Below are positions 10,023-54,700 of a DNA stretch of 64,000 bases, piece after piece. This DNA is from Sphingorhabdus wooponensis. Lineage in GTDB: Bacteria; Pseudomonadota; Alphaproteobacteria; Sphingomonadales; Sphingomonadaceae. The translations under genes were made by a program, and so were the position numbers. Each line of letters opens with the position of its first letter. The first letter of the stretch is position 1. The stretch lies in NCBI RefSeq assembly GCF_003933235.1, contig NZ_RWJI01000001.1, forward strand, positions 1,246,001-1,310,000, in the 5' to 3' direction. A model generated the notes under the pieces. It was not told the DNA's origin. It saw only the letters and a list, made by a program, of their open reading frames with translations, and searched no databases.

Positions 10023-11890
10023 TACATTTCCACCGCTTCTATCCGCACCAACAATGCCTCGACCTGCACCTGTGCACCCGTCTCCGCATTCAACTCCGCC
10101 ACCATGCCGTCAAACGGCGCAGTTAGGCTATGTTCCATCTTCATCGCTTCGAGCGTTACCAGTTTCTGGCCTTTGGACACTGTGTCCCCCACAGCGACAT
10201 CAACCGCGATGATCCGGCCCGGCATCGGCGATAGGATTGCACCGTCGCTTGCGGCACTATGCCCCGACCCGCGCGGATCATCCAAGACATAACGACGCGC
10301 AAAACCATCGGCAAAGGCAAGCACATCAGCAGTCGGTTCGTCGGCCTCGATTTCGTCAAACGCAACGACATATAGGTTGCCAGCGTCGTCTAAAAGGCGT
10401 GCTTCCGCACGCGGCGGTGCATTCAAACGAAAACCAACTATTGCGCTTACGGGACCATCGCCGGGGCTGGCGCACAACAACGCCGCCGCCTCGGCAAGCT
10501 CTTGCGCTTCTGGCGCGGATGGATGCACAAGATTATCGACTTCACGCGCAATCAGGCCCGTATCAATATCGCCAAGCCCGAACGCCTCCAGATCCAGCAG
10601 CCGCCCCAAAAAGCCCGCATTCGTTTTCACGGGCCAGACTTCAGTGTCGTCAATGCCGTCGCGCAAGCGGTCCATCGCCGCATCGCGCGTTTCACCCCAT
10701 GATATGAGCTTAGCGACCATCGGATCATAATAAGGCGACACCTCGCCGCCTTGCTCTACACCTGTATCAACACGCAATTCTTCCGGAAAGGACAGATGGT
10801 CAAGCGGGCCAATGGACGGCAAAAAGCCTGTCGCTGGGTTTTCGGCATAAAGCCGCGCTTCCATCGCCCAGCCATTGATGCGCAGCGCGTCCTGCTGCAA
10901 TGGCAAGGGCTCCCCGCTCGCCACACGCAACTGCCATTCGACAAGGTCAACGCCTGTGATTTCTTCAGTCACCGGATGTTCGACCTGCAACCGCGTATTC
11001 ATTTCCATGAACCAGATGCGATCGGCGCGCAGGCCCTCAGACGCATCTGCAATGAATTCGATTGTGCCAGCACCGACATAGTCGACGGCTTTTGCCGCTT
11101 TCACCGCGACTGCGCAAAGCTGCGCACGGGTCGCTTCGTCCATGCCCGGCGCGGGGGCTTCTTCAATTACCTTCTGGTGGCGGCGTTGCAGTGAACAATC
11201 GCGTTCGAACAAATGGACGATGTTGCCATGGGTGTCGCCAAACACCTGCACCTCAATATGGCGCGGGCGCTGAATATATTTCTCAATCAGGACATGGGCG
11301 TTACCGAATGATGCGCTGGCCTCGCGCTGGCAAGAGGCGAGCGCATCGGCAAAGTCGCCAGCACTATCCACCTTGCGCATTCCCTTCCCGCCACCGCCTG
11401 CAACGGCTTTGATCAGCACGGGATAGCCAATTTCGGCGGCGCGCTGGCTAAGGAAATTTGGGTCTTGATTATCCCCCATATAGCCCGGGGTCACGGGCAC
11501 ACCCGCCTCGGCCATCAATTTTTTGGCGGCGTCCTTCAGGCCCATGGCGGTAATGCTGTCGGGGCGCGGCCCAACCCATATCAGGCCAGCGTCCATCACT
11601 GCTTGTGCGAATTCCGCATTTTCAGACAGGAAGCCATAGCCCGGATGGATCGCCTCTGCACCCGTGGCTTTGGCCGCAGCGATGATCTTTGCGCCGACCA
11701 AATAGCTCTCCCGCGCCGCAGAAGGCCCAATATGCACCGCCGCATCGGCTTCGCGCACATGCAATGCATGGGCATCCGCGTCCGAATAAACCGCTATTGT
11801 GCGTATACCCATGTCGCGCGCGGTGCGGATAATCCGGCAAGCAATCTCACCACGATTGGCAATGAGGAGGGATTGGATTATTTTACTCAC
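10022..11890 (-). CDS. mccA: Methylcrotonyl-CoA carboxylase, biotin-carrying alpha subunit
   Basis: 622 residues: biotin carboxylase domain ([17 protein letters not shown], about 8-450, with ATP-grasp glycine loop [11 protein letters not shown] and [13 protein letters not shown]), a linker/BT domain, and a C-terminal biotinyl domain with [10 protein letters not shown], where the lysine carries biotin. It carboxylates biotin with bicarbonate and ATP; the beta subunit transfers the carboxyl group to 3-methylcrotonyl-CoA in leucine catabolism. The start is GTG (11888-11890), overlapping the mccB stop (GTGA). Pairing with an MccB-type beta subunit, rather than a propionyl- or acetyl-CoA type, decides the call; geranyl-CoA carboxylase is the main alternative. 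Confidence 0.9.
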
Positions 11891-38305: not shown

Positions 38306-39013
38306 TCAGTCGTCGAGGCAGTAAATGTCGACAGGAACGACAATTTTGTCGAGCACCCGGCCGACAGGATAAGCTGATTTTCCGCCCTGTTCGATCGCTG
38401 TTTCTAGCACTTCACGTTTCTGTGCGCCGCTAATAACCAAAATAGCCGTTCGCGCCGCGCCGATGGCTGCGCCTGTTAATGTAACCCTATTAACGGGCGC
38501 TTCGGGCGGTAAAGGATCGGGTGCAACGCCCACGGCGCGAACATCTTTGCCGCTGTCCATCACCAATTCCAAATCAGGGCCAGGGAAAATCGATGCCGTG
38601 TGGCCATCTGTTCCCATGCCGAGCCAAACCAGATCTGGCGGCCAATGCAAATCAGCCAACCGTGCATTCGCCGCGCTGCCCGCCAGTTTATGGTCGGCGG
38701 CATCACTTGCGATTGGCAAAACCCGCGCACCCTTTGGAATGAAAATTTTGGCAATCATCGCCACATTAGACAAGGCATTGTCCACGGGAACTAAGCGGTC
38801 ATCGGTCGGGATAATTGTTACGTTTTTCCAACGAATATTAGCCTGAGCAAGCTTTTCCAAAATCGGCTTTGGTGTTGAACCCCCGGGAAATGCTACCAGA
38901 GCCTGCCCCCGCGCATCCAAAGCGCTTTCAATGATGAAGCTGACATCGCCGACCACGGCATCAATCAAATCTTCCGCAGCGTCAAAATCCCACCATTCGA
39001 TTTCTTCGGCCAT
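38306..39013 (-). CDS. pgl: 6-phosphogluconolactonase
   Basis: 235 residues from the ATG at 39013; a longer frame to 39121 overlaps eda. Hydrolyses 6-phosphogluconolactone made by Zwf. NagB/DevB-like fold with LVAFPGGSTPKPILEKL, IPTDDRLVPVDNALSN and the GMGTDGHTASIFPG active-site loop. Last gene of the Entner-Doudoroff operon, 16 bases after eda. A stem GCACGG/CCGTGC lies just downstream at 38271-38296, but no T tract makes it a clear terminator. Confidence 0.94.
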   Translation of the reverse strand: MAEEIEWWDFDAAEDLIDAVVGDVSFIIESALDARGQALVAFPGGSTPKPILEKLAQANIRWKNVTIIPTDDRLVPVDNALSNVAMIAKIFIPKGARVLPIASDAADHKLAGSAANARLADLHWPPDLVWLGMGTDGHTASIFPGPDLELVMDSGKDVRAVGVAPDPLPPEAPVNRVTLTGAAIGAARTAILVISGAQKREVLETAIEQGGKSAYPVGRVLDKIVVPVDIYCLDD

Positions 39014-39029
39014 ATGCCTTGCGTCTCCG

Positions 39030-39644
39030 TTAGTTCCGTAATGCCGATGCGGCGCGCGCTGCCGATTCAATCGCGGCAACTTCGGGAACGCCTTTACCAA
39101 CAAGCCAGCTACCGCCAACACATAAAATTTCCGGAACGGCCAACCAATCTGCTGCTGTATCTTGTTTTATACCACCAGTAGGGCAAAATTTGCACTGACC
39201 GAATGGTCCAATAAGCGACTTGAGTGCCGGAAGGCCGCCATTGGCCTCGGCTGGAAAGAATTTGAAATGCGTGAGGCCGAGCTCAAGCCCGCGCATGATG
39301 TCACCAGCACTCGCGACACCAGGCAAGAATGGTATGCCTTTGGCGACGGCTGCTTTACCTAAATTGTCGGTCAGGCCCGGCGAGACAATGAACTCAGCGC
39401 CAGCACCGATAGCACATTCAAGACTCGGCACATCGACAATGGTACCAGCCCCAACAATCGCGCCGGGGACTTTCTTCATTTCGGCAATCGCATCCAACGC
39501 CGCAGCGGTGCGTAAGGTTACCTCAAGCACGGGAAGCCCTCCCGCCACGAGCGCCTCCGCTATGCCACGCGCATGCGCGGCATCTTCGATTACCAGAACC
39601 GGAATAACGGGCGCAGTGCGCATGATTTTTTCGATGAGAGTCAT
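39030..39644 (-). CDS. eda: 2-keto-3-deoxy-6-phosphogluconate (KDPG) aldolase
   Basis: 204 residues; cleaves KDPG to pyruvate and glyceraldehyde 3-phosphate. TIM-barrel class I aldolase with the Schiff-base lysine in HFKFFPAEANGG, the catalytic Glu region LEVTLRTAAALDAI, GAGTIV and the phosphate site CPTGGI. Fourth gene of the zwf-edd-glk-eda-pgl operon, 12 bases after glk. The GRGTG-like phosphate features of 4-hydroxy-2-oxoglutarate aldolase overlap, but the context settles KDPG. Confidence 0.96.
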   Translation of the reverse strand: MTLIEKIMRTAPVIPVLVIEDAAHARGIAEALVAGGLPVLEVTLRTAAALDAIAEMKKVPGAIVGAGTIVDVPSLECAIGAGAEFIVSPGLTDNLGKAAVAKGIPFLPGVASAGDIMRGLELGLTHFKFFPAEANGGLPALKSLIGPFGQCKFCPTGGIKQDTAADWLAVPEILCVGGSWLVGKGVPEVAAIESAARAASALRN

Positions 39645-39656
39645 GGAGCGATGTCC

Positions 39657-40628
39657 TCAAATATGTTGCTGGGCGTAAGCAGCCGCTGCACCAAAAAGGC
39701 CTGGTTGTGGATGTGTGATAAGCTTGACCGGTATCGCAGCCATTAGGGCTTCGAAGCGCCCCTTGGCCCGAAAGCGTTCGGCAAAGCCCGAACGAATAAG
39801 GCTGTCCTTTATGCGCAAGCCTAGCCCGCCTGCAATCACAACGCCTGCGAAACCGCCCTGTGCGAGTGTGATATCACCCGCGACACTGCCCAGCGACAGA
39901 CAAAAGCGGTCAACCGCGGCAGCGGCAAGGCTGTCTTCACCTGACATGCCCATTTGCCATAAGGTCTTGTCATCATATTGTTGGACCGCACGCCCCTCAA
40001 TCGCCGCAAGCGTTTCGTAGAGGTCGATAAGGCCTGGTCCAGATACAACGCGTTCAATCGACACCCGTCGATAACGCTTGCGCAACCTTGCCAAGACCGC
40101 GTCCTCAATCGCGTCCAACGGCGCAAAATCGATATGCCCACCCTCAGTTGCTTGCACATGATAATCGTTGCCCTTGCGCCATACATGCGCCACGCCAAGA
40201 CCCGTTCCCGGCCCGATAATGCTCAACGTTCCTTCCGTAGCGAAGTCCTGCTCTGGCCCGGTCAGATGCTGGAAATGCTCTGAACCGGCTTGTGCTACGG
40301 CATGCCCAACGGCGCCAAAGTCATTAACGATGACAAAACTGTCTACCTGCAATTTCTCGCACACAAGCGACCGACGAATAATCCATGGATTGTTGGTCAG
40401 CTTGATCACATCAGCATCCACGGGCCCAGCAATTGCAATTGCCGCCGCGCGGGGAAGTGGTGTGCCATTGATCCGTTCAAATTCCTGCCACGCCGTCTGA
40501 AAACTCGCGTGCTCAGCAGTTTTCAGCGTCACCGCTTCACCCAAGGCAAGCACGCGGCCGTCTTGAACCTCAGCTAGGGCGAACCGGGCATGGGTTCCGC
40601 CGATATCGACAGCCACAATCGCCGTCAT
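39657..40628 (-). CDS. glk: Glucokinase
   Basis: 323 residues of the ROK-unrelated bacterial glucokinase (Glk) family. ATP-binding [15 protein letters not shown] at the N-terminus, [20 protein letters not shown] with the glucose-binding NNPW, the catalytic [24 protein letters not shown] and [13 protein letters not shown]. Makes glucose 6-phosphate for Zwf. Overlaps edd by four bases. Confidence 0.95.
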
Positions 40629-42448
40629 AGTCCAGCAACCGCTAACATGGCCGATCCGCCTTTCTCTGCCTCATCGGCGCCGGCCTGCATCAATGCAAAC
40701 AACTCACGCCCTGTTCCTATATGCCGTGCTGGCGTCGGTGCTGGCGCACGAGATGACCAGATATCTGCATCCACCAAGACCGACAATGTTCCAGTGTTCG
40801 CGCAAAGCCGGACGATGTCGCCATCCTGTAGCTTTGCGATAGCCCCACCACGCGCACCTTCTGGACTTAAATGGATAGCAGCGGGCACTTTCCCAGACGC
40901 GCCGGACATACGACCATCCGTGACGAGCGCCACATTAAAGCCCTTATCCTGCAACACACCGAGGCATGGGGTCAGCTTGTGCAATTCCGGCATGCCATTA
41001 GCGGCGGGACCTTGGAAACGGATAACGACAATGACATCGCGATCCAATTCGCCCGCTTTAAATGCTGCCAATGCGTCATTCTGGTCATGAAACACACGGA
41101 CGGGCGCTTCTATCTTCCAGCGGGCAGGATCGACTGCGCTGGTCTTGAATGTTGCACGGCCCAAATTGCCCGTCACCAGACGCATCCCGCCATCGGGGCT
41201 AAAGGGCGCTGACGGTGGACGCAACATGGTGTCATCTGCCGTGACCTCTGGCGCGTCTCGCCAGACAAGCTTTTCATCCTCCAGCACCGGCTCACGCCCA
41301 TAATCGCCCAAGTCATTGCCTGCGACCGTCATGATATCGCGATGCAGCAGGCCAGCGTCAATCAGTTCGCGGATGACATAACCCATCCCGCCTGCGGCAT
41401 GGAAATGGTTCACATCGCCTGAGCCATTTGGATAGACTCTGGCAATGAGCGGCACCGCAGAGGACAATTGGTCTAAATCTTCCCAGTCAATATTGATGCC
41501 CGCTGCCCGTGCAATTGCCGGAATATGCAGTGCATGGTTGGTCGAACCACCCGTGGCAAGCAAGCCCACACAGGCGTTCACAATTGCCTTTTCATCCACG
41601 CAAAGCCCCAAGGGCCGATAATCATCTCCATCCCAGCCAATCTCGCTGAGGCGATGGACGGCAGCACGTGTCAATTCGGTCCGTAACTTCGTGCCGGGGT
41701 TGATGAAAGCCGAACCCGGAATGTGTAGTCCCATCACTTCCATCATCATCTGGTTTGAATTTGCGGTGCCATAAAAAGTGCAAGTGCCCGCGCTGTGATA
41801 CGACGCGGCTTCCGCCTCTAACAATTCGGCGCGCCCGACCTTACCCTCGGCGTAAAGCTGCCGCACGCGTTGCTTTTCTTTATTGGCAAGACCCGATGGC
41901 ATGGGCCCAGCGGGCACAAGGATGGTTGGCAAATGACCAAAGCGCAATGCGCCCATTAATAGACCGGGTACAATTTTGTCGCAAATGCCCAGCATCGCAA
42001 CGCTTTCGAACATGCCGTGGCTAAGACCCACCGCCGTGGCCATCGCGATAACATCGCGGCTGAACAAGGACAGCTCCATCGAATCCTGCCCTTGCGTGAC
42101 ACCATCGCACATGGCGGGGGTCGAGCCTGCCACTTGCGCCGTGGCGCCAACCTCACGTGCAAAAATCTTCATCTGTTCGGGGTAGCGTCCATATGGCTGA
42201 TGCGCGGAAAGCATGTCGTTATACGCGCTGATAATGCCGATGTTCATCGCCTTGCCATCGCGAATGGCCGCCTTGTCCTCGCCACTAGCTGCAAAGCCAT
42301 GCGCGAGGTTACCACAGCTTAAAACCGGACGATTAACACCCGCATCGCGTTGCTTAGCGATCAGGTCGAGATAGGCCTGACGCCCAAGCTTGGAGCGTTG
42401 GATAATCCGCGCGGTGACGGCTTCGACTGTGACGTGCAATTTACTCAT
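40625..42448 (-). CDS. edd: 6-phosphogluconate dehydratase
   Basis: 607 residues of the IlvD/Edd family, [4Fe-4S] enzyme turning 6-phosphogluconate into KDPG. Cluster cysteines in [27 protein letters not shown] and [31 protein letters not shown]-terminal [22 protein letters not shown]. The Edd rather than IlvD identity comes from length, the phosphate-binding region and the operon. Overlaps zwf by eight bases and glk by four. Confidence 0.97.
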
Positions 42449-43886
42449 GCCAGCTCACTCCATCGCGTTCAGTCAGCGCTATCGCCGCATTGGGACCCCA
42501 GCTTCCCGCGCCATAGGTTTTTGGCTTAAGTGCCGTGGCGTTCCACAAGGCCCGTATGGCATCGATCCATGTCCACTGCGCCTCAACTTCATCCCGGCGG
42601 ACAAATAAAGTCTGATCGCCTTCTATGAGGTCGAGAAGCAGTCTTTCATACGCAATCCGCCGACGCGATCCGGCAAAGGCTGCCGTCAGTGACAAATCCA
42701 GCGGCACTTCCCGCAAGGTAACTCCGCCGCGATCTAGACCAGGTTCTTTTGCCATCACCAACAAGCGGACATATTCTTCCGGTTGCAAACGGATGATAAG
42801 AGTGTTGGCGTCGAGTTTTCCGCCACGGTCTCGAAATACATTGTGCGGCACAGGCTTGAATTGTATGACAATCTCGCTGCGCCGTTCGGGCAGGCGTTTG
42901 CCCGTACGCAGGAAGAACGGAACACCCTGCCAGCGCCAATTGTCGACATACGCCTTTATCGCCACAAAGGTTTCGGTGTCGGATGCTTTACCCAGATCGC
43001 TTTCATAACTTTGAACCGCATCTCCTTGGACCGCGCCTTCGGCGTATTTACCGGTCACAACGTCACCCTCCACCACAGGACGCAGCGCGCGCAGAACCTT
43101 CACCTTTTCATCACGAATGGCGGTAGCATCCAGGCTGGCGGGCGGTTCCATCGCAATCAGTGCAAGAAGTTGCAACATATGGTTCTGCACCATGTCCCGC
43201 AGCGCACCGGTATCATCATAAAAACCAGCGCGACCCTCAAGCCCGACAGTTTCGCTAACCGTGATCTGCACATGCTCTATGGCATTGGCATTCCACAATG
43301 GTTCAAACAACATATTGGCAAAGCGCAGCGCCATGAGGTTCTGCACGGTTTCCTTGCCCAGATAATGGTCTATGCGAAAGGTGCGTTTTTCCGGAAATAC
43401 GGCGTTGACGGCATCATTAATATGGCACGAGGACGCAAGATCATTGCCCAATGGTTTTTCAAGACCAATACGCACATTCTCGCCCGACAGACCGGCATTG
43501 TGCAGTCCTTTGATTGTGGCTTCGAACAAAGATGGCGCTGTGGACAGGAAAATGGACAAGCCACCCGATATATCACCGATGGTATCGGCGAGTTCCACAA
43601 AGCCATCGGGGTTAGAGGCGTCTAACGCGACATAATGTAAGCGTTGCAAGAAGGCGTCAATCAACCCCTCAGCCTTACGGTCCTCAGGCAGAAATTCGCA
43701 CAAGGCCGCGCGGGCCATGTCGCGAAAACCGTCGTCGGTCAGCGGGCTTCGCGCGGTGCCAAAAATCCGCAAATTCGGTTGAATCAAACCATCGGCGTAT
43801 AAGGCGTATAAGGACGGTAACAACATCCGGCGCGAAAGGTCACCCGTCGCCCCGAACAGCAGCAAGGTTGAACTATGGACTCGCAT
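42441..43886 (-). CDS. zwf: Glucose-6-phosphate 1-dehydrogenase
   Basis: 481 residues. First enzyme of the operon, oxidising glucose 6-phosphate with NADP+/NAD+. Rossmann loop [22 protein letters not shown] near the N-terminus, substrate motif [21 protein letters not shown] with catalytic His/Lys, and [15 protein letters not shown]. Good ribosome site AGGAGATAAAAGGA before the ATG. The 100-base gap upstream to the FabD-like gene has no terminator, so read-through from the E1/FabD-like pair into the Entner-Doudoroff genes is possible. Confidence 0.97.
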
Positions 43887-43986: not shown

Positions 43987-45021
43987 TTAGCTTAACGCCC
44001 ACGCGCGCTGTTCGGCCATGCCCATCGATATCAAAACGTGTTCATCCTGCTGCCGTGCTTGGAAGTCTGCCTTGCCAGAAAGACCACGCCAACACGAAGC
44101 AATAAGCGCCTGAATGGTTGGCGCGCCTAGGGTTGTTCCGGGGCCAAGCACAATTATCGTATCGGGTGCAAATTCGGCGGCAGCGACCTGAACTGCAAGG
44201 CTAAAATCATAGCTATCGGTCAGTTGCGCACCGAACGTGTAATCATAAATAGCATCACGGCTAAATGCGCGTGGGGACCAAATTCGGCCCTGCCCATCTA
44301 TCGCCGGAATTTCGCCAAACCCGAAATCGTTAAGCGGATTGGCTGTCCGCGCCATCGGAACAACATGGTTCAGCAAAGGGCTATGGAATGCGGCATGGTG
44401 CATAAGCTTTAACGGAAAACGGTCATCTTTAGGCAACCGTTCCATTAACCATTTGAGCCCAGCCTCGTCTGCGGCAAAAACTATCATACCGCCAAGCCGG
44501 ATGGAAATATACGCACTTATTTGAGAAATTTTCTGCGCTTCATTGATTAAATTATTAACAAATAACAATTTATCTTGCTGGATATTCCAGTCATCATCCG
44601 CGACTGACCAAACAATTTGTCCACCGACCCCATGCTGGTGCATGATGCCGCCCATATTGTTGACGAGCCGTGCTCCGCCGGCAAGATCGACGATACCCGC
44701 ACAAGCTAAGGCCAGATACCACCCCATAGAATTACCGGTTACAGCGACAATGTCATATTGTTCACGGTCAATCGCAGCAAAGTCCGCCATTGCGCAGGCG
44801 TAAATCGAAGCCGAGGCATTATCGCCCGTCATATGTACTGACGGCGCGTATTTGCCTGCGGCATCAAGCTGCGATACAGTTACCTGCCCCATCGCGGTCC
44901 GAGTGGCGTCCACTGTCGCAATAACGTCTTGGCGCGCCGCATGATGCGCTTTCAGATAACCAAGTTCTGTAGCATTATAGGTCCCGCGCCCAGGGCAAAT
45001 AACTAAAGCCCGTTTTTTCAT
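43987..45021 (-). CDS. FabD-like acyltransferase lacking the malonyl-binding arginine
   Basis: 344 residues from the ATG at 45021, which overlaps the E1 stop (ATGA); a longer frame to 45198 lies inside E1. Acyltransferase (malonyl-CoA:ACP transacylase) fold: nucleophile Ser98 in GNSMGWYLALA, His213 in AAFHSPLL, and a GPGTTLG loop. Two differences from FabD: the oxyanion GQG is GRG (CPGRGTYN), and the position of the arginine that grips the malonyl carboxylate is Met123 (ARLVNNMGGIM). That points to a non-carboxylated acyl group. In context it may act on the product of the coupled E1. Product and acceptor are unknown. Confidence 0.8.
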   Translation of the reverse strand: MKKRALVICPGRGTYNATELGYLKAHHAARQDVIATVDATRTAMGQVTVSQLDAAGKYAPSVHMTGDNASASIYACAMADFAAIDREQYDIVAVTGNSMGWYLALACAGIVDLAGGARLVNNMGGIMHQHGVGGQIVWSVADDDWNIQQDKLLFVNNLINEAQKISQISAYISIRLGGMIVFAADEAGLKWLMERLPKDDRFPLKLMHHAAFHSPLLNHVVPMARTANPLNDFGFGEIPAIDGQGRIWSPRAFSRDAIYDYTFGAQLTDSYDFSLAVQVAAAEFAPDTIIVLGPGTTLGAPTIQALIASCWRGLSGKADFQARQQDEHVLISMGMAEQRAWALS

Positions 45022-47210
45022 GCCACCGCCGCCCGCGCCGCTTCGATGATAGATGCTTTGCTGGGCAACACCAGCTCCGCTGCTGGCCCCAAAGGAATGA
45101 AGCAATCTTCGGCTGTAATCCGACTGACGGCATCGCCGCGTCCAGCTTCGGTAAAAATGGTCATCAACTTTTCGCTGAGGCTTCCCGACTTGCGGCATTC
45201 ATCGACAATCAAAATCTTCCTGCAATCTGCCACTGCCGCGACAATAGCAGCGGCCTTTAACGGGTGCAGCCAACGTAGATCAATGATCCGCAGGTCAATC
45301 CCCCCCGCCTTCAATTCATCCGCCGCTTGCCGCGATAGAAAATAACCATTTCCGTATGTTATAATGGCAAGCTCAGTACCCTTGTCAAATTGACCTAGCG
45401 CACCAAGCGCGATCATTTTGTCCTGATCCGGCGCAACATAAGGTGCGGTCCAACCGCTGTCGTCCGGTTGCTGCAGGTCGGTTGTATGATAGAGCGCGAT
45501 AGGCTCAATAAAGACCACGACCCGTCCGTCCTCATGCGCCAGCCGGACGCATTCCCGCAACATTGCTGGCGCATCAGCGGCGCTGGAGGGGCAAGCAACG
45601 ATGATACCGGGAATATCGGTCAGGACGGCCAAGCTATTATCATTATGGAAATGCCCGCCAAACCCCTTTTGATATGGCAGACCAGCAATGCGGATCACCA
45701 TAGGGTTGCGATATTGCTGGTTCGAAAAGAACGATAAGGTCGCAGCCTCTCCGCGGATTTGATCCTCAGCATTGTGCAGATAAGCCAAAAACTGGATTTC
45801 GGGGATTGGCACAAAGCCGTTATGCCCCATGCCAACGGCAAGGCCCAAGATCGTTTGTTCGTCTAGTAATGTGTCAAATACACGCGCAGCGCCGAATTTC
45901 TCCTGCAAGCCTTGCGTCACGCCATAGACGCCGCCCTTGCGCGCGACATCTTCGCCAAACACCGCGACATGAGGATATTGCAACATGATGTCTGCCAACG
46001 CGAAATTAATGCTTTTGGCCAAGGTCGCGGGCTTAGCAAGGTTACGCGCATCTTTAGTGAACAGCGCATCACGCTTCGCCGCATCGGGTAAGGGCTGCGG
46101 GGGTTGCGCGGATTTCGTTGGTTCAATCGACGCCATCACTTCTGCAGCAGTTACCAAACGCGGTTTAGCCAAGGCATCCTGAGCCACGCGGTCGACCCGG
46201 GCACGCATATCTTCATAGCGCGCAACAATCTCTGCGCCTGACATGCCCGCTTGTTCATGCAAAATACGCGCGCTGTGTAACAACGGATCTTCCGCTTCTG
46301 CAGCTTCAATCTGTGCAATAGAAGCGTAGCTTAGCTCAACATCTGCACCAGCATGCCCCATCAACCGGACTGTCTGCATGTGCAGAAACACTGGCTTGCG
46401 TCGCGTACGAGCATAGGTCACCGCTTCTGCGCATCCGCGCAGAGCATCATTCATGTCCGCACCATCGCAGCTTATATAATGCAAGGCGGGCCTATGCGCG
46501 AAATTGGCGGCAATCCAGCCGCCCGGGGTTCGCACAGAAATCCCGATGCCATTATCCTCACACATAAAGACAATAGGCATCGGCAAATGCTGATATGCAG
46601 CCCAAGTAGCCGCATTGAATGCCCCTTGCGACGTTGAATGGTTCGCAGAGGCATCACCGAACGAACATAAAATTATCGCATCATGCGGCAAAACAGCATC
46701 GGCAAGCTGCAACCTTTGCGCCATGCCAAGCGAATGCGCCGCACCAACTGCCTTCGGCAAATGAGACGCAATCGTGCTGGTTTGCGGCGGAACAAAACTA
46801 TGCGCACACCCCAATACCTTGTGCCGCCCGCCCGAAATCGGGTCATCCGCGGATGCGGCGAAGGACAAGGCCATATCGTGCAACGGCGTCAGGCCACCTG
46901 CTTGCTTCTTACGTTGGATAAGGAAAGCTGCATCGCGATAATGCAAAAATGCCATGTCGGTCGAACGTGTTGCAGCGGCCATTGCGGCTGTACCCTCATG
47001 CCCCGAACTACCGATGGAATAAAAAGTTTTCCCCTTCGAACGGCGGGCCCAAAGGTCGAGATGGCGGCTCATAATCTGACTATCAAACAGATCGACAACT
47101 ATGTGCGGCGGGGCCAATTTCGTAACCTGGCTGGAGCGCGGTTCCGGAAAATCATGCGCAGCGACGCGGCGGGAAAATGCCTCGTCCAAAATCGTGGGGC
47201 GGTCAAACAT
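45018..47210 (-). CDS. Fused alpha-beta thiamine-diphosphate 2-oxoacid dehydrogenase E1 component
   Basis: 730 residues joining both E1 chains. Residues about 45-330 form the alpha half, with FYSIGSSGHEGTAAMAAA, FLHYRDAAF and the ThDP motif GDASANHST...FMCEDNGIGIS. A linker rich in Pro/Ala/Lys follows (about 355-385). Residues about 395-725 form the beta half, with VAVFGEDVARKGGVYGVTQGL, FDTLLDEQTILGLAVGMG, GLPYQKGFGGHFHNDNSL and ITYGNGYFL. It decarboxylates a 2-oxoacid (pyruvate or branched-chain type). No E2 or E3 gene is in the window; instead it is coupled to a FabD-like acyltransferase. A near-perfect TTAATC-type palindrome lies 54 bases upstream. Confidence 0.88.
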   Translation of the reverse strand: MFDRPTILDEAFSRRVAAHDFPEPRSSQVTKLAPPHIVVDLFDSQIMSRHLDLWARRSKGKTFYSIGSSGHEGTAAMAAATRSTDMAFLHYRDAAFLIQRKKQAGGLTPLHDMALSFAASADDPISGGRHKVLGCAHSFVPPQTSTIASHLPKAVGAAHSLGMAQRLQLADAVLPHDAIILCSFGDASANHSTSQGAFNAATWAAYQHLPMPIVFMCEDNGIGISVRTPGGWIAANFAHRPALHYISCDGADMNDALRGCAEAVTYARTRRKPVFLHMQTVRLMGHAGADVELSYASIAQIEAAEAEDPLLHSARILHEQAGMSGAEIVARYEDMRARVDRVAQDALAKPRLVTAAEVMASIEPTKSAQPPQPLPDAAKRDALFTKDARNLAKPATLAKSINFALADIMLQYPHVAVFGEDVARKGGVYGVTQGLQEKFGAARVFDTLLDEQTILGLAVGMGHNGFVPIPEIQFLAYLHNAEDQIRGEAATLSFFSNQQYRNPMVIRIAGLPYQKGFGGHFHNDNSLAVLTDIPGIIVACPSSAADAPAMLRECVRLAHEDGRVVVFIEPIALYHTTDLQQPDDSGWTAPYVAPDQDKMIALGALGQFDKGTELAIITYGNGYFLSRQAADELKAGGIDLRIIDLRWLHPLKAAAIVAAVADCRKILIVDECRKSGSLSEKLMTIFTEAGRGDAVSRITAEDCFIPLGPAAELVLPSKASIIEAARAAVA

Positions 47211-50115: not shown

Positions 50116-52311
50116 TTATGGGGCGGTTTTATACAAAGTCTCGCCCTTGTCTGCCATCTCACGGAAGTTTTTGGGCGGTGCAAACCGATGGCCAAAACGT
50201 TGCGCAAGATTGTCAGCGGTGCGGACGAAGTTTTCCAACCCAACTGTGTCGATATAGCTCATCGGACCGCCTGTATAAGGCGCAAATCCCCAACCAAAAA
50301 TCGCCCCCAAATCGGCGCTTTGCGGGTCTTTGACGACCTCTTCTTCAAAGCACTGTGCCGTGGCAATCAGTTGGATGTACAACAAACGTTGCTTCACCTC
50401 GTCAACGGACGGCTGTTCAGCGGCGAGCGGATAATGCTCCGCCATACCTTGCCACAGGCTCAGCCGTTCGCCCTTAGCATCATAATCGTAAAAGCCTGAA
50501 CCAAAGCGGCGTCCCTTGCGGCCAAGCTTGACCACCATCAACTCCATAAAGTCTTCGGTGCCGCTTGGCTGATACGCGTCGCCCAATTCCTTCTTGGTCG
50601 ACTGCATAACGTCATAGCCCAATTGCAAGGTGGTTTCATCAAGCAACGCCAGCGGACCGATGGGCATGCCAAGCGCCTTTGATGCGTTTTCAATCAACGC
50701 TGGCTTTACGCCCTCAGTCACCAGCTTCATCGCCTCACCCATATATGGCGGGAACACCCGGTTGGTGAAAAATCCACGCACATCCTTAACGACAATCGGC
50801 GTTTTCTTGATTTTGGCGTTGTAATCAAACGCCGCTGCCAAGGCACGATCACCCGTCAACGCGCCGGGGATGATCTCAAGCAATGGCATCTTTTCAACCG
50901 GTGAAAAGAAATGCAGTCCAACGAACAGTTCCGGACGCGACGAATTTTTGGCAAGGCCTGTAATCGGCAGGGTCGATGTGTTGGACGCAAATACGACATC
51001 AGGACCGATGACGGCTTCTGCCTTCTTGATTACATCGGCCTTCACATCAGGACGTTCGAAAACGGCTTCAATGATCAGATCAACATCTTTTAGGTCGTCA
51101 TAATTGTCGGTCGGCGTAATCCGCGCCATGAAGGCGTCGCCAGCCTCCTTGGTCATCTTGCCACGGCTAACGGCCTTGTCGATGATCTTACGGCTGTAAT
51201 CGACGGCCTTGTTGGCGTCTTCCAAGCTACGATCGAGAACAACCACATCCATGCCGCCCTTGACGGTGACATGTGTGATACCCGACCCCATCAGGCCGCC
51301 ACCCAACACGCCAACCTTCTTGATCTCCACTGGAGGCACGCCTGCGGGACGTCCAGCGCCCTTCTCGGCGGCCTGCTTATTTATGAACAAGGTGCGGATC
51401 ATGTTCTTGGCTTGGCTACCCGAAAGCAGTTTGGTGAAATATTTCGATTCCACACGCAGCGCGGTATCGAATGGCAGGATCGAGCCTTCATACAGGCAAG
51501 ACAGTATCGCCTTTATGGCATCGAAATTGCCTTTGCTCTCCTTGTGCGCCATGGCGTTGAGGCCAACGAATAACTGCACGGCGCGCGGGTCCATTGCCCC
51601 TGCCCCACCCGGGAATTTGAAATCTTTCCTATCCCAAGGTGCTGTGACCTTCGGATTTGCTTTAACCCAGGCCTTCGCATGCGCAATCAGTTCAGCCGCT
51701 GGCGCGACTTCATGGACGAGGCCTTGCGCCTTTGCCGTGGCAGGATCGAGCGCCTTGCCCTGAATGATCATCATCGCTGCATTCTGCAGACCGATCAGGC
51801 GCGGCGTCCGTTGTGTGCCACCGCCGCCGGGCAGCAAGCCCACCATGACTTCGGGCATGCCAAGCTGAATTTTCGGATGGTCGATAACGACGCGGTAATG
51901 GCACGCCAAAGCCAGCTCAAGTCCGCCGCCCAAGGCAAGTCCATTCAGCGCGCAAGCCACTGGCTTAGCTGACGCTTTACCGGAACTTAGGTCCTTGGCC
52001 GACTGACCGCCTGTTTCCATTTTGCGCAACAAGGCGTTCAACGCAAATGCCTGGTCAAAAGCTTCTTTAGTGCTGTTCGCCTTCGCGCCGCCCAACATAG
52101 TAAGGTCAGCACCAGCCAAAAAACCCGATTTTTTGCCCGAGGTGATGACCGCGCCTTTAACGGCGTCGTTGGTCGTGAAATCATCTACCCATTTGGTAAA
52201 TTCTTCAATCAGCGCGCCATTCCATACATTCATGGAGGCGTCGGGTAGATCGATGGTCAAAAGTGCAATGCCATCGGCGTCGATATCGACGGAGAAAGTT
52301 TTATATGTCAT
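50116..52311 (-). CDS. fadB: Multifunctional enoyl-CoA hydratase / 3-hydroxyacyl-CoA dehydrogenase (FadB/FadJ type)
   Basis: 731 residues from the ATG at 52311. N-terminal crotonase domain (about 1-190: GKKSGFLAGADLTMLGG, LNGLALGGGLELALACHYRV, PEVMVGLLPGGGGTQRTPRL with the catalytic glutamates), then the NAD-binding dehydrogenase (about 310-600: VGVLGGGLMGSGITHVTVKGG, FASNTSTLPITGLA, GLHFFSPVEKMPLLEII with catalytic His/Glu) and a C-terminal helical domain. Catalyses the two middle steps of beta-oxidation. Third gene of the Amacr-fadA-fadB operon, 14 bases after fadA. Confidence 0.95.
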   Translation of the reverse strand: MTYKTFSVDIDADGIALLTIDLPDASMNVWNGALIEEFTKWVDDFTTNDAVKGAVITSGKKSGFLAGADLTMLGGAKANSTKEAFDQAFALNALLRKMETGGQSAKDLSSGKASAKPVACALNGLALGGGLELALACHYRVVIDHPKIQLGMPEVMVGLLPGGGGTQRTPRLIGLQNAAMMIIQGKALDPATAKAQGLVHEVAPAAELIAHAKAWVKANPKVTAPWDRKDFKFPGGAGAMDPRAVQLFVGLNAMAHKESKGNFDAIKAILSCLYEGSILPFDTALRVESKYFTKLLSGSQAKNMIRTLFINKQAAEKGAGRPAGVPPVEIKKVGVLGGGLMGSGITHVTVKGGMDVVVLDRSLEDANKAVDYSRKIIDKAVSRGKMTKEAGDAFMARITPTDNYDDLKDVDLIIEAVFERPDVKADVIKKAEAVIGPDVVFASNTSTLPITGLAKNSSRPELFVGLHFFSPVEKMPLLEIIPGALTGDRALAAAFDYNAKIKKTPIVVKDVRGFFTNRVFPPYMGEAMKLVTEGVKPALIENASKALGMPIGPLALLDETTLQLGYDVMQSTKKELGDAYQPSGTEDFMELMVVKLGRKGRRFGSGFYDYDAKGERLSLWQGMAEHYPLAAEQPSVDEVKQRLLYIQLIATAQCFEEEVVKDPQSADLGAIFGWGFAPYTGGPMSYIDTVGLENFVRTADNLAQRFGHRFAPPKNFREMADKGETLYKTAP

Positions 52312-52325
52312 ATTTTCTGTCCCGA

Positions 52326-53540
52326 TCAATTCACGCGTTCAATGATGGTTGCGGTGCCCATGCCCGCCCCGATGCACAGGGTGGTAAGCGCAGTCGATTT
52401 GCCGGATCGCTCCAGCTCATCCAATACAGTCCCAAGGATCATCGCACCCGTTGCACCTAAAGGATGCCCCATGGCTATTGCGCCGCCGTTCACATTGATG
52501 TCGGAATGGTCGATGTTCATCGCTTCCATGAAGCGAAGGACAACCGAAGCGAAGGCTTCGTTCAATTCCCACACGTCAATATCGCCTTTGTCCATTCCTG
52601 CCCGGGCCAGCGCCTTTTGTGCGGCAAATTCGGGACCCGTCAGCATGATGGCAGGTTCAGAACCAATCGACGCCATTGAAACAATCCGCGCCCGCGCCTT
52701 CAGGCCGTATTTTTCGCCAGCTTCCTTCGTGCCAATCAGCACGGCAGCCGAACCATCGACGATACCCGAACTATTGCCCGCATGATGAACATGATTGATC
52801 TTTTCGACGTCGGGATAGCGCATGATGGCAATATCATCGAAGCCAGGCATCATCGTGCCCATCATTTGGAATGCAGGGGCCAACGCACCCAAGGACTGCA
52901 TATCGGTTTGCGGACGCATCAATTCGTCATGGTCAAGTACAACCTCACCAATAACGTCTTTGATGGGCAGGATGGAACGCGCAAAGCGCTTCTCAGCCCA
53001 TGCGCGGCCAGCGCGCCTCTGGCTCTCAACGGCATAGGCATCGACATCGTCGCGGCTATAGCCATATTTGGTGGCGATCAGGTCCGCCGAAATACCTTGC
53101 GGAATAAAGTAATTGGCAATTGCCGAACGCGGGTCGATTGGCCATGCGCCGCCGTCTGAACCCATGGGCACGCGGCTCATCGATTCAATGCCGCCGCCTA
53201 CTGCCAGATCGCACTCACCGGATTTCACCTTGGCCGCAGCAATGTTCGACGCTTCAAGGCCAGAACCGCAAAAACGGTTTACTTGAATACCCGAAGTTGT
53301 GTGCGGATAGCCCGCGGCAAGAACCGCGGTGCGCGTAATGACTGCGCCTTGTTCCCCCACGGGCGAAACGCAACCAAAGGCTACATCCTCAATTTCTTCC
53401 CCCGACAAACCATTACGGTCACGGATCGCGGCCAAGACCTGCCCGGCCAGATCGATTGGCGTAATTTCATGCAATGCACCATCTGGGCGCCCCTTGCCGC
53501 GCGGGCTACGCACCGCATCATAAATATAGGCTTCGGTCAT
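52326..53540 (-). CDS. fadA: Acetyl-CoA C-acyltransferase (thiolase)
   Basis: 404 residues with the thiolase triad: Cys91 in VNRFCGSGLEA, His in GHPLGATGAM and the second Cys in LCIGAGMGTA. The acyl-CoA binding loop and the WELNEAFASVVLRFMEAM segment fit degradative thiolases. Completes beta-oxidation with the adjacent FadB. Two bases separate it from the upstream Amacr stop. Biosynthetic PhaA-type thiolase is the alternative, made unlikely by the context. Confidence 0.94.
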   Translation of the reverse strand: MTEAYIYDAVRSPRGKGRPDGALHEITPIDLAGQVLAAIRDRNGLSGEEIEDVAFGCVSPVGEQGAVITRTAVLAAGYPHTTSGIQVNRFCGSGLEASNIAAAKVKSGECDLAVGGGIESMSRVPMGSDGGAWPIDPRSAIANYFIPQGISADLIATKYGYSRDDVDAYAVESQRRAGRAWAEKRFARSILPIKDVIGEVVLDHDELMRPQTDMQSLGALAPAFQMMGTMMPGFDDIAIMRYPDVEKINHVHHAGNSSGIVDGSAAVLIGTKEAGEKYGLKARARIVSMASIGSEPAIMLTGPEFAAQKALARAGMDKGDIDVWELNEAFASVVLRFMEAMNIDHSDINVNGGAIAMGHPLGATGAMILGTVLDELERSGKSTALTTLCIGAGMGTATIIERVN

Positions 53541-53542
53541 AT

Positions 53543-54700
53543 TCAGTCCTTGTTTGCGACCACAGCACCCGCCGCGATCAGTTGGGATATTTCATGTTCA
53601 CCGAGGCCAGCCTCGGTCAATATGTCGGCATAATCGCCGCCTTTTGTGGCAATATCGAAATGGGAAGCCAAAGGCTGTGTTGCAAGGCGCGGCGCAAGCT
53701 GTGGATGCAACCAACGCCCATCCTGTACAAAGGCCTGCCGTGCGGCATTTGCTGGATGGGATGCGGCTTCGACATAATCCAGCACGGGCGTCACGCACGC
53801 ATCGGTTCCGGCAAAAATCGCTTCCCATTCGTCGCGCGTTTTAGTCGCGAACACATCTTCCAGCAATTCATGCTGCTTTGCCCAAGCTGCGCGGTCATGC
53901 TGCCCACCATAGGTATCTTTATCGACGGGTAAGCGCTCCATCATCGCGGCGAAAAACTGCGGTTCAATACAGCCAACGGCCATAAACTTACCGTCCGACG
54001 TCATATAACAACGGTAGAATGGGGACGCGCCATCAAGCAAATTTGCTTCACGCTGCGTGCGCCATTGGCCAAGCCCGGCCATGCCATGAACAAAGCTCAT
54101 CAGGCTGTTGGTGCCATCGACAATCGCCGCATCGACTATATTACCTTTGCCGGTCCGTGCGCGCTCGACCAAAGCGGCAAGGATACCATTGACGAGGAAC
54201 ATCGACCCGCCACCAAAATCACCAACCATATTGAGCGGCGGAACCGGCGGCTGCCCGTTCTTACCGATCGCGTTCAAAACGCCCGTCATGCCGATATAAT
54301 TTATGTCATGCCCGGCCATTTGGCTCCACGGCCCCGTTTGCCCCCAGCCCGTCATCCGGCCATAAATCAGACCAGGGTTGACCGCGTGACAGGCATCGGG
54401 ACCTACCCCCATGCGCTCGGTCACACCAGGCCGCAGTCCTTCAATCAAGACATCAGCCGATGCAACCAGCTTCAACAAAGCGGTCACCGCTTCAGGCTTC
54501 TTCAAATCAAGGATGATTGATTTTTTACCACGCCCATCAATGGCCTTGGGCACGATAGAGCCACCCGGCCTATCAATGACAATTACGTCCGCCCCCATGT
54601 CCGCCAGCAACTGCCCAGCATAAGGTCCAGGTCCTATACCGGCGAGCTCAACAATCTTTATGCCGCTTAACGGACCGGATTTGGGGGGAGAATCGGTCAT
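53543..54700 (-). CDS. Alpha-methylacyl-CoA racemase-like CoA transferase family III enzyme
   Basis: 385 residues of the CaiB/BaiF family. LSGIKIVELAGIGPGPYAGQLLADMGADVIVIDRP and the catalytic Asp/His region (GHDINYIGMTGVLNAIG) match the AMACR branch, which epimerises 2-methylacyl-CoA so that branched chains can be beta-oxidised; class III CoA transferase is the alternative. It heads the operon with fadA and fadB, which supports branched-chain or isoprenoid/steroid side-chain degradation. Two palindromes lie in its 209-base upstream region. Confidence 0.88.
   Translation of the reverse strand: MTDSPPKSGPLSGIKIVELAGIGPGPYAGQLLADMGADVIVIDRPGGSIVPKAIDGRGKKSIILDLKKPEAVTALLKLVASADVLIEGLRPGVTERMGVGPDACHAVNPGLIYGRMTGWGQTGPWSQMAGHDINYIGMTGVLNAIGKNGQPPVPPLNMVGDFGGGSMFLVNGILAALVERARTGKGNIVDAAIVDGTNSLMSFVHGMAGLGQWRTQREANLLDGASPFYRCYMTSDGKFMAVGCIEPQFFAAMMERLPVDKDTYGGQHDRAAWAKQHELLEDVFATKTRDEWEAIFAGTDACVTPVLDYVEAASHPANAARQAFVQDGRWLHPQLAPRLATQPLASHFDIATKGGDYADILTEAGLGEHEISQLIAAGAVVANKD

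What the first reader, a model, noticed from the sequence alone, without database searches (positions are those of the whole stretch)
43987..47210. E1 alpha-beta fusion coupled to a FabD-like acyltransferase without the malonyl arginine; no E2/E3
The 2-oxoacid dehydrogenase E1 stop and the acyltransferase start overlap (ATGA). The acyltransferase keeps Ser98 and His213 but has Met123 where FabD has the arginine that binds the malonyl carboxylate, and GRG in place of GQG. Normally E1 hands its acyl group to a lipoyl E2, which is missing here. A chemically consistent reading is that a 2-oxoacid is decarboxylated and the acyl or aldehyde-level product is passed to, or edited by, an unusual acyltransferase, possibly onto a carrier protein. 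I know of no named pathway with this pair.
Basis: partly seen in the sequence, partly recalled or inferred. Interest (0 to 1): 0.66.

Follow-up and report, generated by a model that had tools for sequence, protein, structure and literature searches.

The report
Likely 2-oxoadipate dehydrogenase with acyltransferase partner
A pair of overlapping bacterial genes, found together in many Proteobacteria and often next to the gene for the following step, probably makes glutaryl-CoA from 2-oxoadipate, a step in breaking down lysine whose bacterial enzymes are poorly known.

Summary
A 730-aa fused E1 (45018-47210, minus) and a 344-aa FabD-fold acyltransferase (AT; 43987-45021, minus) overlap by ATGA. 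The AT has Ser98, His213, GRG, and Met123 at FabD's malonyl-binding Arg.

It is a conserved unit: the E1 lies upstream of the AT, same strand, in 79 of 80 named loci and 30 of 30 strong loci of the family, window included. Arg12, at FabD's Gln of GQG, is invariant in 41 of 41.

The pathway clue lies outside the window. Glutaryl-CoA dehydrogenase (gcdH) is directly upstream in 33 of 117 distinct loci gathered through the AT; aminotransferase, aminoadipate-semialdehyde dehydrogenase and lysine dehydrogenase genes recur. Best reading: a 2-oxoadipate E1 of BCKDH/PDH type that borrows lipoyl E2 and E3, with an AT that transfers glutaryl from lipoyl to CoA or clears stalled adducts.

Against: 13 of 29 E1-bearing genomes lack the AT; genome-wide co-occurrence with gcdH or the semialdehyde dehydrogenase is not significant in the family; no biochemistry exists.

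New variant of a known kind; the RefSeq name 'ACP S-malonyltransferase' is probably wrong.

The parts
45018..47210 (-). Fused alpha-beta 2-oxo acid dehydrogenase E1 (730 aa), proposed 2-oxoadipate-specific
   Evidence: Pfam PF00676, PF02779, PF02780 above cut-off; catalytic positions kept by alignment to BCKDH alpha and PDH beta chains; 23 of 24 tested positions invariant in 111 E1 rows, E420 in 109
43987..45021 (-). FabD-fold acyltransferase (344 aa) with Ser98/His213, Met123, Arg12; proposed to act on glutaryl thioesters
   Evidence: AlphaFold and Foldseek, profile match to FabD structures, conservation
45018..45021 (-). ATGA stop/start overlap coupling the two genes
   Evidence: sequence; same 4-base overlap in 30 of 40 relatives

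Best explanation
The E1 is a 2-oxoadipate decarboxylase/dehydrogenase of the fused BCKDH/PDH type. It binds ThDP, decarboxylates 2-oxoadipate (from lysine or another 2-aminoadipate source) and glutarylates a lipoyl group borrowed from an E2 of another complex; glutaryl-CoA is the product and goes to glutaryl-CoA dehydrogenase. The AT forms a Ser98-glutaryl enzyme and moves glutaryl from dihydrolipoyl to CoA; because it is dispensable, it may help a borrowed E2 rather than replace it. Shown by sequence: the conserved gene pair, intact E1 catalytic positions, AT fold and dyad, and linkage to gcdH and lysine genes. Inferred: the substrate, the borrowed lipoyl, and the direction and acceptor of the AT.
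For: gcdH lies directly upstream on the same strand, 12-311 bp away, in 33 of 117 distinct loci gathered through the AT (35 of 119 with L182 and L183, which I fetched because searches already showed gcdH beside the E1). They spread over the window's family, Roseobacteraceae, Paracoccaceae, Phyllobacteriaceae, Alteromonadaceae, Colwelliaceae, Shewanellaceae, Oceanospirillaceae and Hahellaceae (families as printed); close species pairs remain in the count. The neighbour matches solved glutaryl-CoA dehydrogenases (E 2e-180 and 6e-179). A P6C/aminoadipate-semialdehyde dehydrogenase (representative 824 bits, cut-off 730) is in 14 of 117 loci and a saccharopine/lysine dehydrogenase-like gene in 9 of 117. 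Two Ruegeria plasmids carry aminotransferase - acyl-CoA dehydrogenase - E1 - AT in a row. The window's own genome has gcdH and this semialdehyde dehydrogenase side by side on another contig (G000:C2:35902-38713). Without the AT, the E1 still follows gcdH in 3 of 4 cases of the phylum sample that lie inside the AT clade (L203, L204, L215, not L206), and in L182. E1 residues D186, N220, H286, E451 and H522 match cofactor or catalytic positions (roles recalled) and are invariant in 111 rows. Precedents, passages seen: human 2-oxoadipate E1 shares E2o and E3 (PMC9367764); actinobacterial OdhA uses lipoyl provided in trans (PMC10415282).
Against: Across 199 family genomes gcdH occurs in 26 of 30 AT carriers and 125 of 169 others (p = 0.10), the semialdehyde dehydrogenase in 6 of 30 and 23 of 169 (p = 0.25): no significant association; four carriers have no gcdH match. 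Of the 117 loci, 72 have no gcdH in the held flanks and 8 have too little flank; in the window itself gcdH is not adjacent. The AT has no match in 13 of 29 E1-bearing genomes, so it cannot be essential to the E1. An ordinary 2-oxoglutarate dehydrogenase E1 can also use 2-oxoadipate in vitro (E. coli E1o, PMC5986005, passages), so a dedicated E1 is not strictly needed. No substrate, product or interaction of these proteins has been measured.
Confidence: 0.55

Rival explanations
1. The AT is a repair hydrolase: it removes glutaryl stuck on the lipoyl groups of E2s that this E1 has loaded, as the serine hydrolase ABHD11 does in human mitochondria.
For: ABHD11 removes glutaryl from the lipoyl group of the E2 shared by the 2-oxoglutarate and 2-oxoadipate complexes (PMC12643935, abstract and passages). 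The AT is an accessory, absent at four places inside its own clade of the E1 tree, which suits a repair role. Stand-alone AT-fold acyl hydrolases exist and lack the malonyl Arg, mostly having Gln there (PMC11775670, passage).
Against: ABHD11 has a different fold (recalled). Nothing here tests hydrolysis. The AT keeps the FabD-type Ser/His pair that also serves transfer.
Confidence: 0.25
2. The AT loads glutaryl (or another acyl group) onto an acyl carrier protein, for example to feed biotin synthesis from glutaryl units.
For: FabD enzymes use ACP; Agrobacterium makes biotin from glutaryl-CoA through BioZ and its resting cells can use lysine or 2-oxoadipate (PMC7645780, passages). Four carriers have no gcdH match (G068, G111, G141, G174).
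Against: I recognised no ACP or biotin gene among the 40 commonest neighbour clusters, read by eye; but that survey left out ORFs under 80 aa, so a small ACP could be missed. BioZ was reported to use glutaryl-CoA; linkage to gcdH points to catabolism.
Confidence: 0.1
3. The E1 acts on a different 2-oxo acid and the link with gcdH is regulatory or historical.
For: 24 of 30 carriers in the family have no match to the aminoadipate-semialdehyde dehydrogenase, and gcdH is common anyway, 151 of 199. In the window the pair adjoins the Entner-Doudoroff genes, not lysine genes. E. coli 2-oxoglutarate E1 can use 2-oxoadipate (PMC5986005, passages).
Against: gcdH adjacency recurs in many families in the same order and strand and is kept in most of the AT-less relatives inside the clade. 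The tested active-site positions are the same in AT-plus and AT-less rows.
Confidence: 0.25

Closest known systems
Human 2-oxoadipate dehydrogenase complex (DHTKD1 E1a with shared E2o and E3)
   Same: Proposed reaction; no E2 of its own; borrowed lipoyl carrier (PMC9367764, passages)
   Different: DHTKD1 belongs to the long 2-oxoglutarate dehydrogenase type of E1 (recalled); this E1 is a BCKDH/PDH-type alpha-beta fusion with an AT beside it
Branched-chain/pyruvate dehydrogenase E1 (alpha2beta2)
   Same: Domain order and catalytic positions
   Different: Alpha and beta fused; invariant His71, His90, His150, Lys153 where the BCKDH alpha chain 1dtw_A has Glu92, Gln112, Gln167, Gln170; no E2 beside it
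FabD malonyl-CoA:ACP transacylase
   Same: Fold and Ser/His dyad
   Different: Met for the malonyl Arg, GRG for GQG, Asn for His before the serine; far below the fabD cut-off
Actinobacterial OdhA
   Same: E1 plus acyltransferase that depends on lipoyl provided in trans (PMC10415282, passages)
   Different: OdhA has an E2-type transferase domain in the same chain, not a FabD fold
ABHD11 glutaryl-lipoyl thioesterase
   Same: Possible serine-based handling of glutaryl-lipoyl (PMC12643935, passages)
   Different: Different fold (recalled), mitochondrial, acts by hydrolysis
gcdR-gcdH-gcoT cluster of Pseudomonas putida
   Same: A LysR gene, gcdH, then a source of glutaryl-CoA (PMC6667623, passages); a LysR cluster is in 22 of 66 loci surveyed here
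   Different: GcoT is a CoA-transferase using glutarate; here the E1 and AT take that place

Membership tests
2-oxo acid dehydrogenase E1 (BCKDH/PDH type) | E1_dh plus transketolase pyrimidine and C-terminal domains | tested here: met
   all three above Pfam cut-offs
2-oxo acid dehydrogenase E1 (BCKDH/PDH type) | ThDP-binding and catalytic residues | tested here: met
   the roles of the residues are recalled
2-oxo acid dehydrogenase E1 (BCKDH/PDH type) | Works with a lipoyl E2 | not testable with these tools
   No E2 in the window; three E2 domains elsewhere in the genome
FabD (malonyl-CoA:ACP transacylase) | FabD fold with Ser/His dyad | tested here: met
FabD (malonyl-CoA:ACP transacylase) | Arg that binds the malonyl carboxylate | tested here: not met
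   Met in 40 of 41, Thr in one; aligned to Arg
FabD (malonyl-CoA:ACP transacylase) | Curated fabD score | tested here: not met
   24.4 bits against 260.9
2-oxoadipate dehydrogenase (function) | Gene linkage to the use of glutaryl-CoA | tested here: met
   gcdH directly upstream in 33 of 117 loci gathered through the AT
2-oxoadipate dehydrogenase (function) | Genome-wide co-occurrence with gcdH and aminoadipate-semialdehyde dehydrogenase | tested here: inconclusive
   26/30 against 125/169 and 6/30 against 23/169, p = 0.10 and 0.25
2-oxoadipate dehydrogenase (function) | Activity with 2-oxoadipate | not testable with these tools
   no biochemistry available
ABHD11-type lipoyl deglutarylase | alpha/beta-hydrolase fold (recalled) | tested here: not met
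   FabD fold
ABHD11-type lipoyl deglutarylase | Glutaryl-lipoyl thioesterase activity | not testable with these tools
   needs an assay
OdhA-type two-in-one enzyme | E2-type transferase domain fused to the E1 | tested here: not met
   Only E1 domains found in the E1 chain; the three PF00198 domains of the genome lie elsewhere

The most novel reading that the evidence does not exclude
A bacterial 2-oxoadipate dehydrogenase built from a BCKDH/PDH-type E1 and a FabD-fold enzyme recruited to act on glutaryl-lipoyl: a fatty-acid-synthesis transferase turned into a lipoyl transacylase or lipoyl deglutarylase, giving the E1 a way to use other complexes' lipoyl arms without blocking them.
Probability: 0.35. 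Interest if true: 0.78.

Novelty: new variant of a known kind. Interest (0 to 1): 0.62.

Why it matters
It proposes dedicated enzymes for 2-oxoadipate to glutaryl-CoA in bacteria. In the listings and passages I saw, that step is assigned to a human complex, and in bacteria only alternatives appear: E. coli 2-oxoglutarate E1 accepting 2-oxoadipate in vitro (PMC5986005, passages) and HglS of Pseudomonas putida, which makes D-2-hydroxyglutarate instead (PMC7286885, abstract in the listing). The claim can be tested with two purified proteins.

Tried and rejected
Branched-chain substrate: not favoured, because the recurrent neighbours are gcdH and lysine genes. Obligate two-gene enzyme: rejected after 13 of 29 E1-bearing genomes showed no AT; nine of these E1s lie on one side of a branch and the other four, with L182, lie inside the AT group. 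Genome-wide co-occurrence as support: tried, not significant. A free lipoyl carrier in the window's genome: seven biotin/lipoyl domains passed the cut-off; I assigned them by frame size and place to the E2s, a PDH beta subunit, BCCP and two carboxylases, which is inference; GcvH belongs to another Pfam family (recalled) that was not searched. Exceptions followed: L168 (Micavibrio MAG) has AT, gcdH, semialdehyde and lysine dehydrogenase genes but in its held genome only a 30% match to the beta part of the E1; G049 (L182) has gcdH and E1 but no AT match at E 1e-3. Paper searches listed no paper whose title or abstract start names this pair; this covers only the held open-licence library. I saw passages of ten papers (PMC9007349, PMC5653290, PMC4334477, PMC7645780, PMC11775670, PMC10415282, PMC9367764, PMC5986005, PMC12643935, PMC6667623) and read none whole.
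Full report
What is there. The finding's coordinates are right and both genes are on the minus strand. The E1 (45018-47210) is one 730-residue chain with the E1_dh domain followed by the transketolase pyrimidine and C-terminal domains. The AT (43987-45021) is 344 residues; its ATG overlaps the E1 stop as ATGA. The next gene downstream on the same strand, zwf, starts 100 bases on.

The AT. It has no Pfam match above cut-off and scores 24.4 bits with the fabD model against a cut-off of 260.9, yet its profile matches FabD structures (best E 8.2e-14) and its AlphaFold model (pLDDT 96.5) matches them by Foldseek (best E 5.1e-18). In 41 sequences Arg12, Asn97, Ser98 and His213 are invariant and Met123 is present in 40. 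In one search Met aligns with the FabD Arg that binds the malonyl carboxylate (Arg117 of E. coli FabD in PMC11775670, passage). Arg12 aligns with the Gln of GQG in a weak local alignment that rests on the PG.G motif. That FabD Gln11 lies at the active site is recalled. So the AT is not an ordinary malonyl transferase, and a conserved arginine exists elsewhere that could meet a longer dicarboxylic acyl group.

The E1. Aligned to a BCKDH alpha chain (1dtw_A; human, recalled) and to PDH beta chains, it keeps the positions expected for metal, ThDP and catalysis (D186, N220, R282, H286, D290, E451, H522; roles recalled). It carries His71, His90, His150 and Lys153 where the BCKDH chain has Glu92, Gln112, Gln167 and Gln170; all four are invariant in 111 of 111 rows. 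These extra basic groups would suit a dicarboxylic substrate, but this is inference. The E1 model is weaker (pLDDT 84.7) and matches transketolases, OdhA and E1 beta chains.

Conservation of the pair. In the window's family, 54 of 199 genomes match the AT at E 1e-3; 30 are strong (E below 1e-80) and the other 24 are weak matches. All 30 strong loci, the window's included, have the E1 upstream on the same strand. In the order sample 44 of 296 genomes match at E 1e-10 (only part of these loci were opened). All 40 longer loci fetched have the pair. In a phylum sample of 398 genomes, 16 have the AT and all 16 have the E1; 29 have the E1, so 13 have it without an AT match. In a tree of 111 E1s, nine AT-less E1s lie on one side of a well supported branch and five AT-less ones sit among the AT rows at four places (L204 with L215, L206, L182, L203). 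The root is a midpoint for drawing, the method was the quick one, and some branches are long.

The pathway. Of 119 distinct loci, 117 were gathered through the AT; L182 and L183 were fetched because gcdH beside the E1 was already seen. In the 117, gcdH lies directly upstream on the same strand at 12-311 bp in 33; four more have it in another arrangement (L117 downstream; L133, L148 and L168 on the other strand); 8 have too little flank; 72 have none in the held flanks. Distinct means different AT sequences, so close species pairs remain. For scale, a single gcdH per genome would fall next to a given gene about once in a thousand or more by chance (estimate, no call). The neighbour is glutaryl-CoA dehydrogenase by comparison with solved structures. 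Lysine-side genes also occur: an aldehyde dehydrogenase above the curated cut-off for L-piperidine-6-carboxylate dehydrogenase, matching solved alpha-aminoadipic semialdehyde dehydrogenases, in 14 of 117; a saccharopine/lysine dehydrogenase-like protein in 9 of 117; an aminotransferase in a few. Annotated Ruegeria plasmids show aminotransferase, acyl-CoA dehydrogenase, E1 and AT in a row, the AT named 'ACP S-malonyltransferase'. A Shewanella plasmid shows acyl-CoA dehydrogenase, E1, AT. Between an aminoadipate aminotransferase and GcdH the missing step is 2-oxoadipate to glutaryl-CoA (established pathway; the aminotransferase's substrate is inferred). The window's own genome has gcdH and the semialdehyde dehydrogenase as divergent neighbours on another contig. 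Of the 13 AT-less E1 loci of the phylum sample, gcdH is directly upstream in three of the four inside the AT group, and a GcdH about 50% identical to the query lies within the flanks in five of the nine others (L211's matches solved GcdH at E 1.6e-142).

Results against. Genome-wide co-occurrence in the family is not significant for gcdH (26 of 30 against 125 of 169, p = 0.10) or for the semialdehyde dehydrogenase (6 of 30 against 23 of 169, p = 0.25). Four carriers have no gcdH match at the threshold used. Other sources of 2-oxoadipate, or another role in some lineages, are open. The AT cannot be essential, since the E1 persists without it. E. coli 2-oxoglutarate E1 accepts 2-oxoadipate (PMC5986005, passages), so the step does not strictly demand a dedicated E1.

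Mechanism. E1 chemistry needs an oxidised lipoyl acceptor (established for this family). None is encoded beside the pair, and I account for the seven biotin/lipoyl domains over the cut-off in the genome by other enzymes, judging by size and place. Two of the three E2s have an E1 within 2 kb; the third has none adjacent, and E3 was not searched for. Human 2-oxoadipate E1 shares E2o and E3 (PMC9367764, passages) and OdhA uses lipoyl provided in trans (PMC10415282, passages), so borrowing is a fair assumption. The AT may carry glutaryl from dihydrolipoyl to CoA through Ser98. Alternatively it clears stalled glutaryl-lipoyl, as ABHD11 does in human mitochondria (PMC12643935, abstract and passages), which would explain why it is optional. 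An ACP as acceptor is less likely but was not properly tested (one search left out ORFs under 80 aa). I cannot choose between these by sequence.

Verdict. A real, widespread gene pair without a name in the searches made (paper searches), placed here in 2-oxoadipate and glutaryl-CoA metabolism. I rate it a new variant of a known kind.

Noticed in passing
window 38306-43886, minus: The pair sits directly before zwf, edd, glucokinase, eda and a 6-phosphogluconolactonase-like gene on the same strand; zwf and edd follow the AT in several relatives too (L039, L040, L111, L113, L114, L115, L119, L121).
   Followed up: partly
window 50116-54700, minus: Beyond the TonB receptor lie genes read by eye as FadJ-like and thiolase, and a family III CoA-transferase (Pfam); together they could carry crotonyl-CoA to acetyl-CoA, but a link to this pair is untested.
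   Followed up: no
L168 10001-11017: A Micavibrio MAG has the AT beside gcdH, semialdehyde and lysine dehydrogenase genes, but its held genome (1.7 Mb, completeness not given) shows only a 30% match to the beta part of the E1.
   Followed up: partly
L205, L207-L214: Nine fused E1s without the AT form a separate group in the E1 tree but share the tested invariant residues.
   Followed up: partly
L042, L044-L047, L050, L051, L053, L054, L057: In ten of twenty loci from the window's family a protein read by eye as a flavin monooxygenase lies after the AT (cluster c2).
   Followed up: no
L202: On a Shewanella aestuarii plasmid the acyl-CoA dehydrogenase-E1-AT run lies between nitrate reductase genes and a transposase, with a conjugation gene at the edge of the stretch.
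   Followed up: no
window 10040-10237, minus: A biotin/lipoyl domain in a 653-aa frame, probably a biotin-dependent carboxylase (the function is inference).
   Followed up: no
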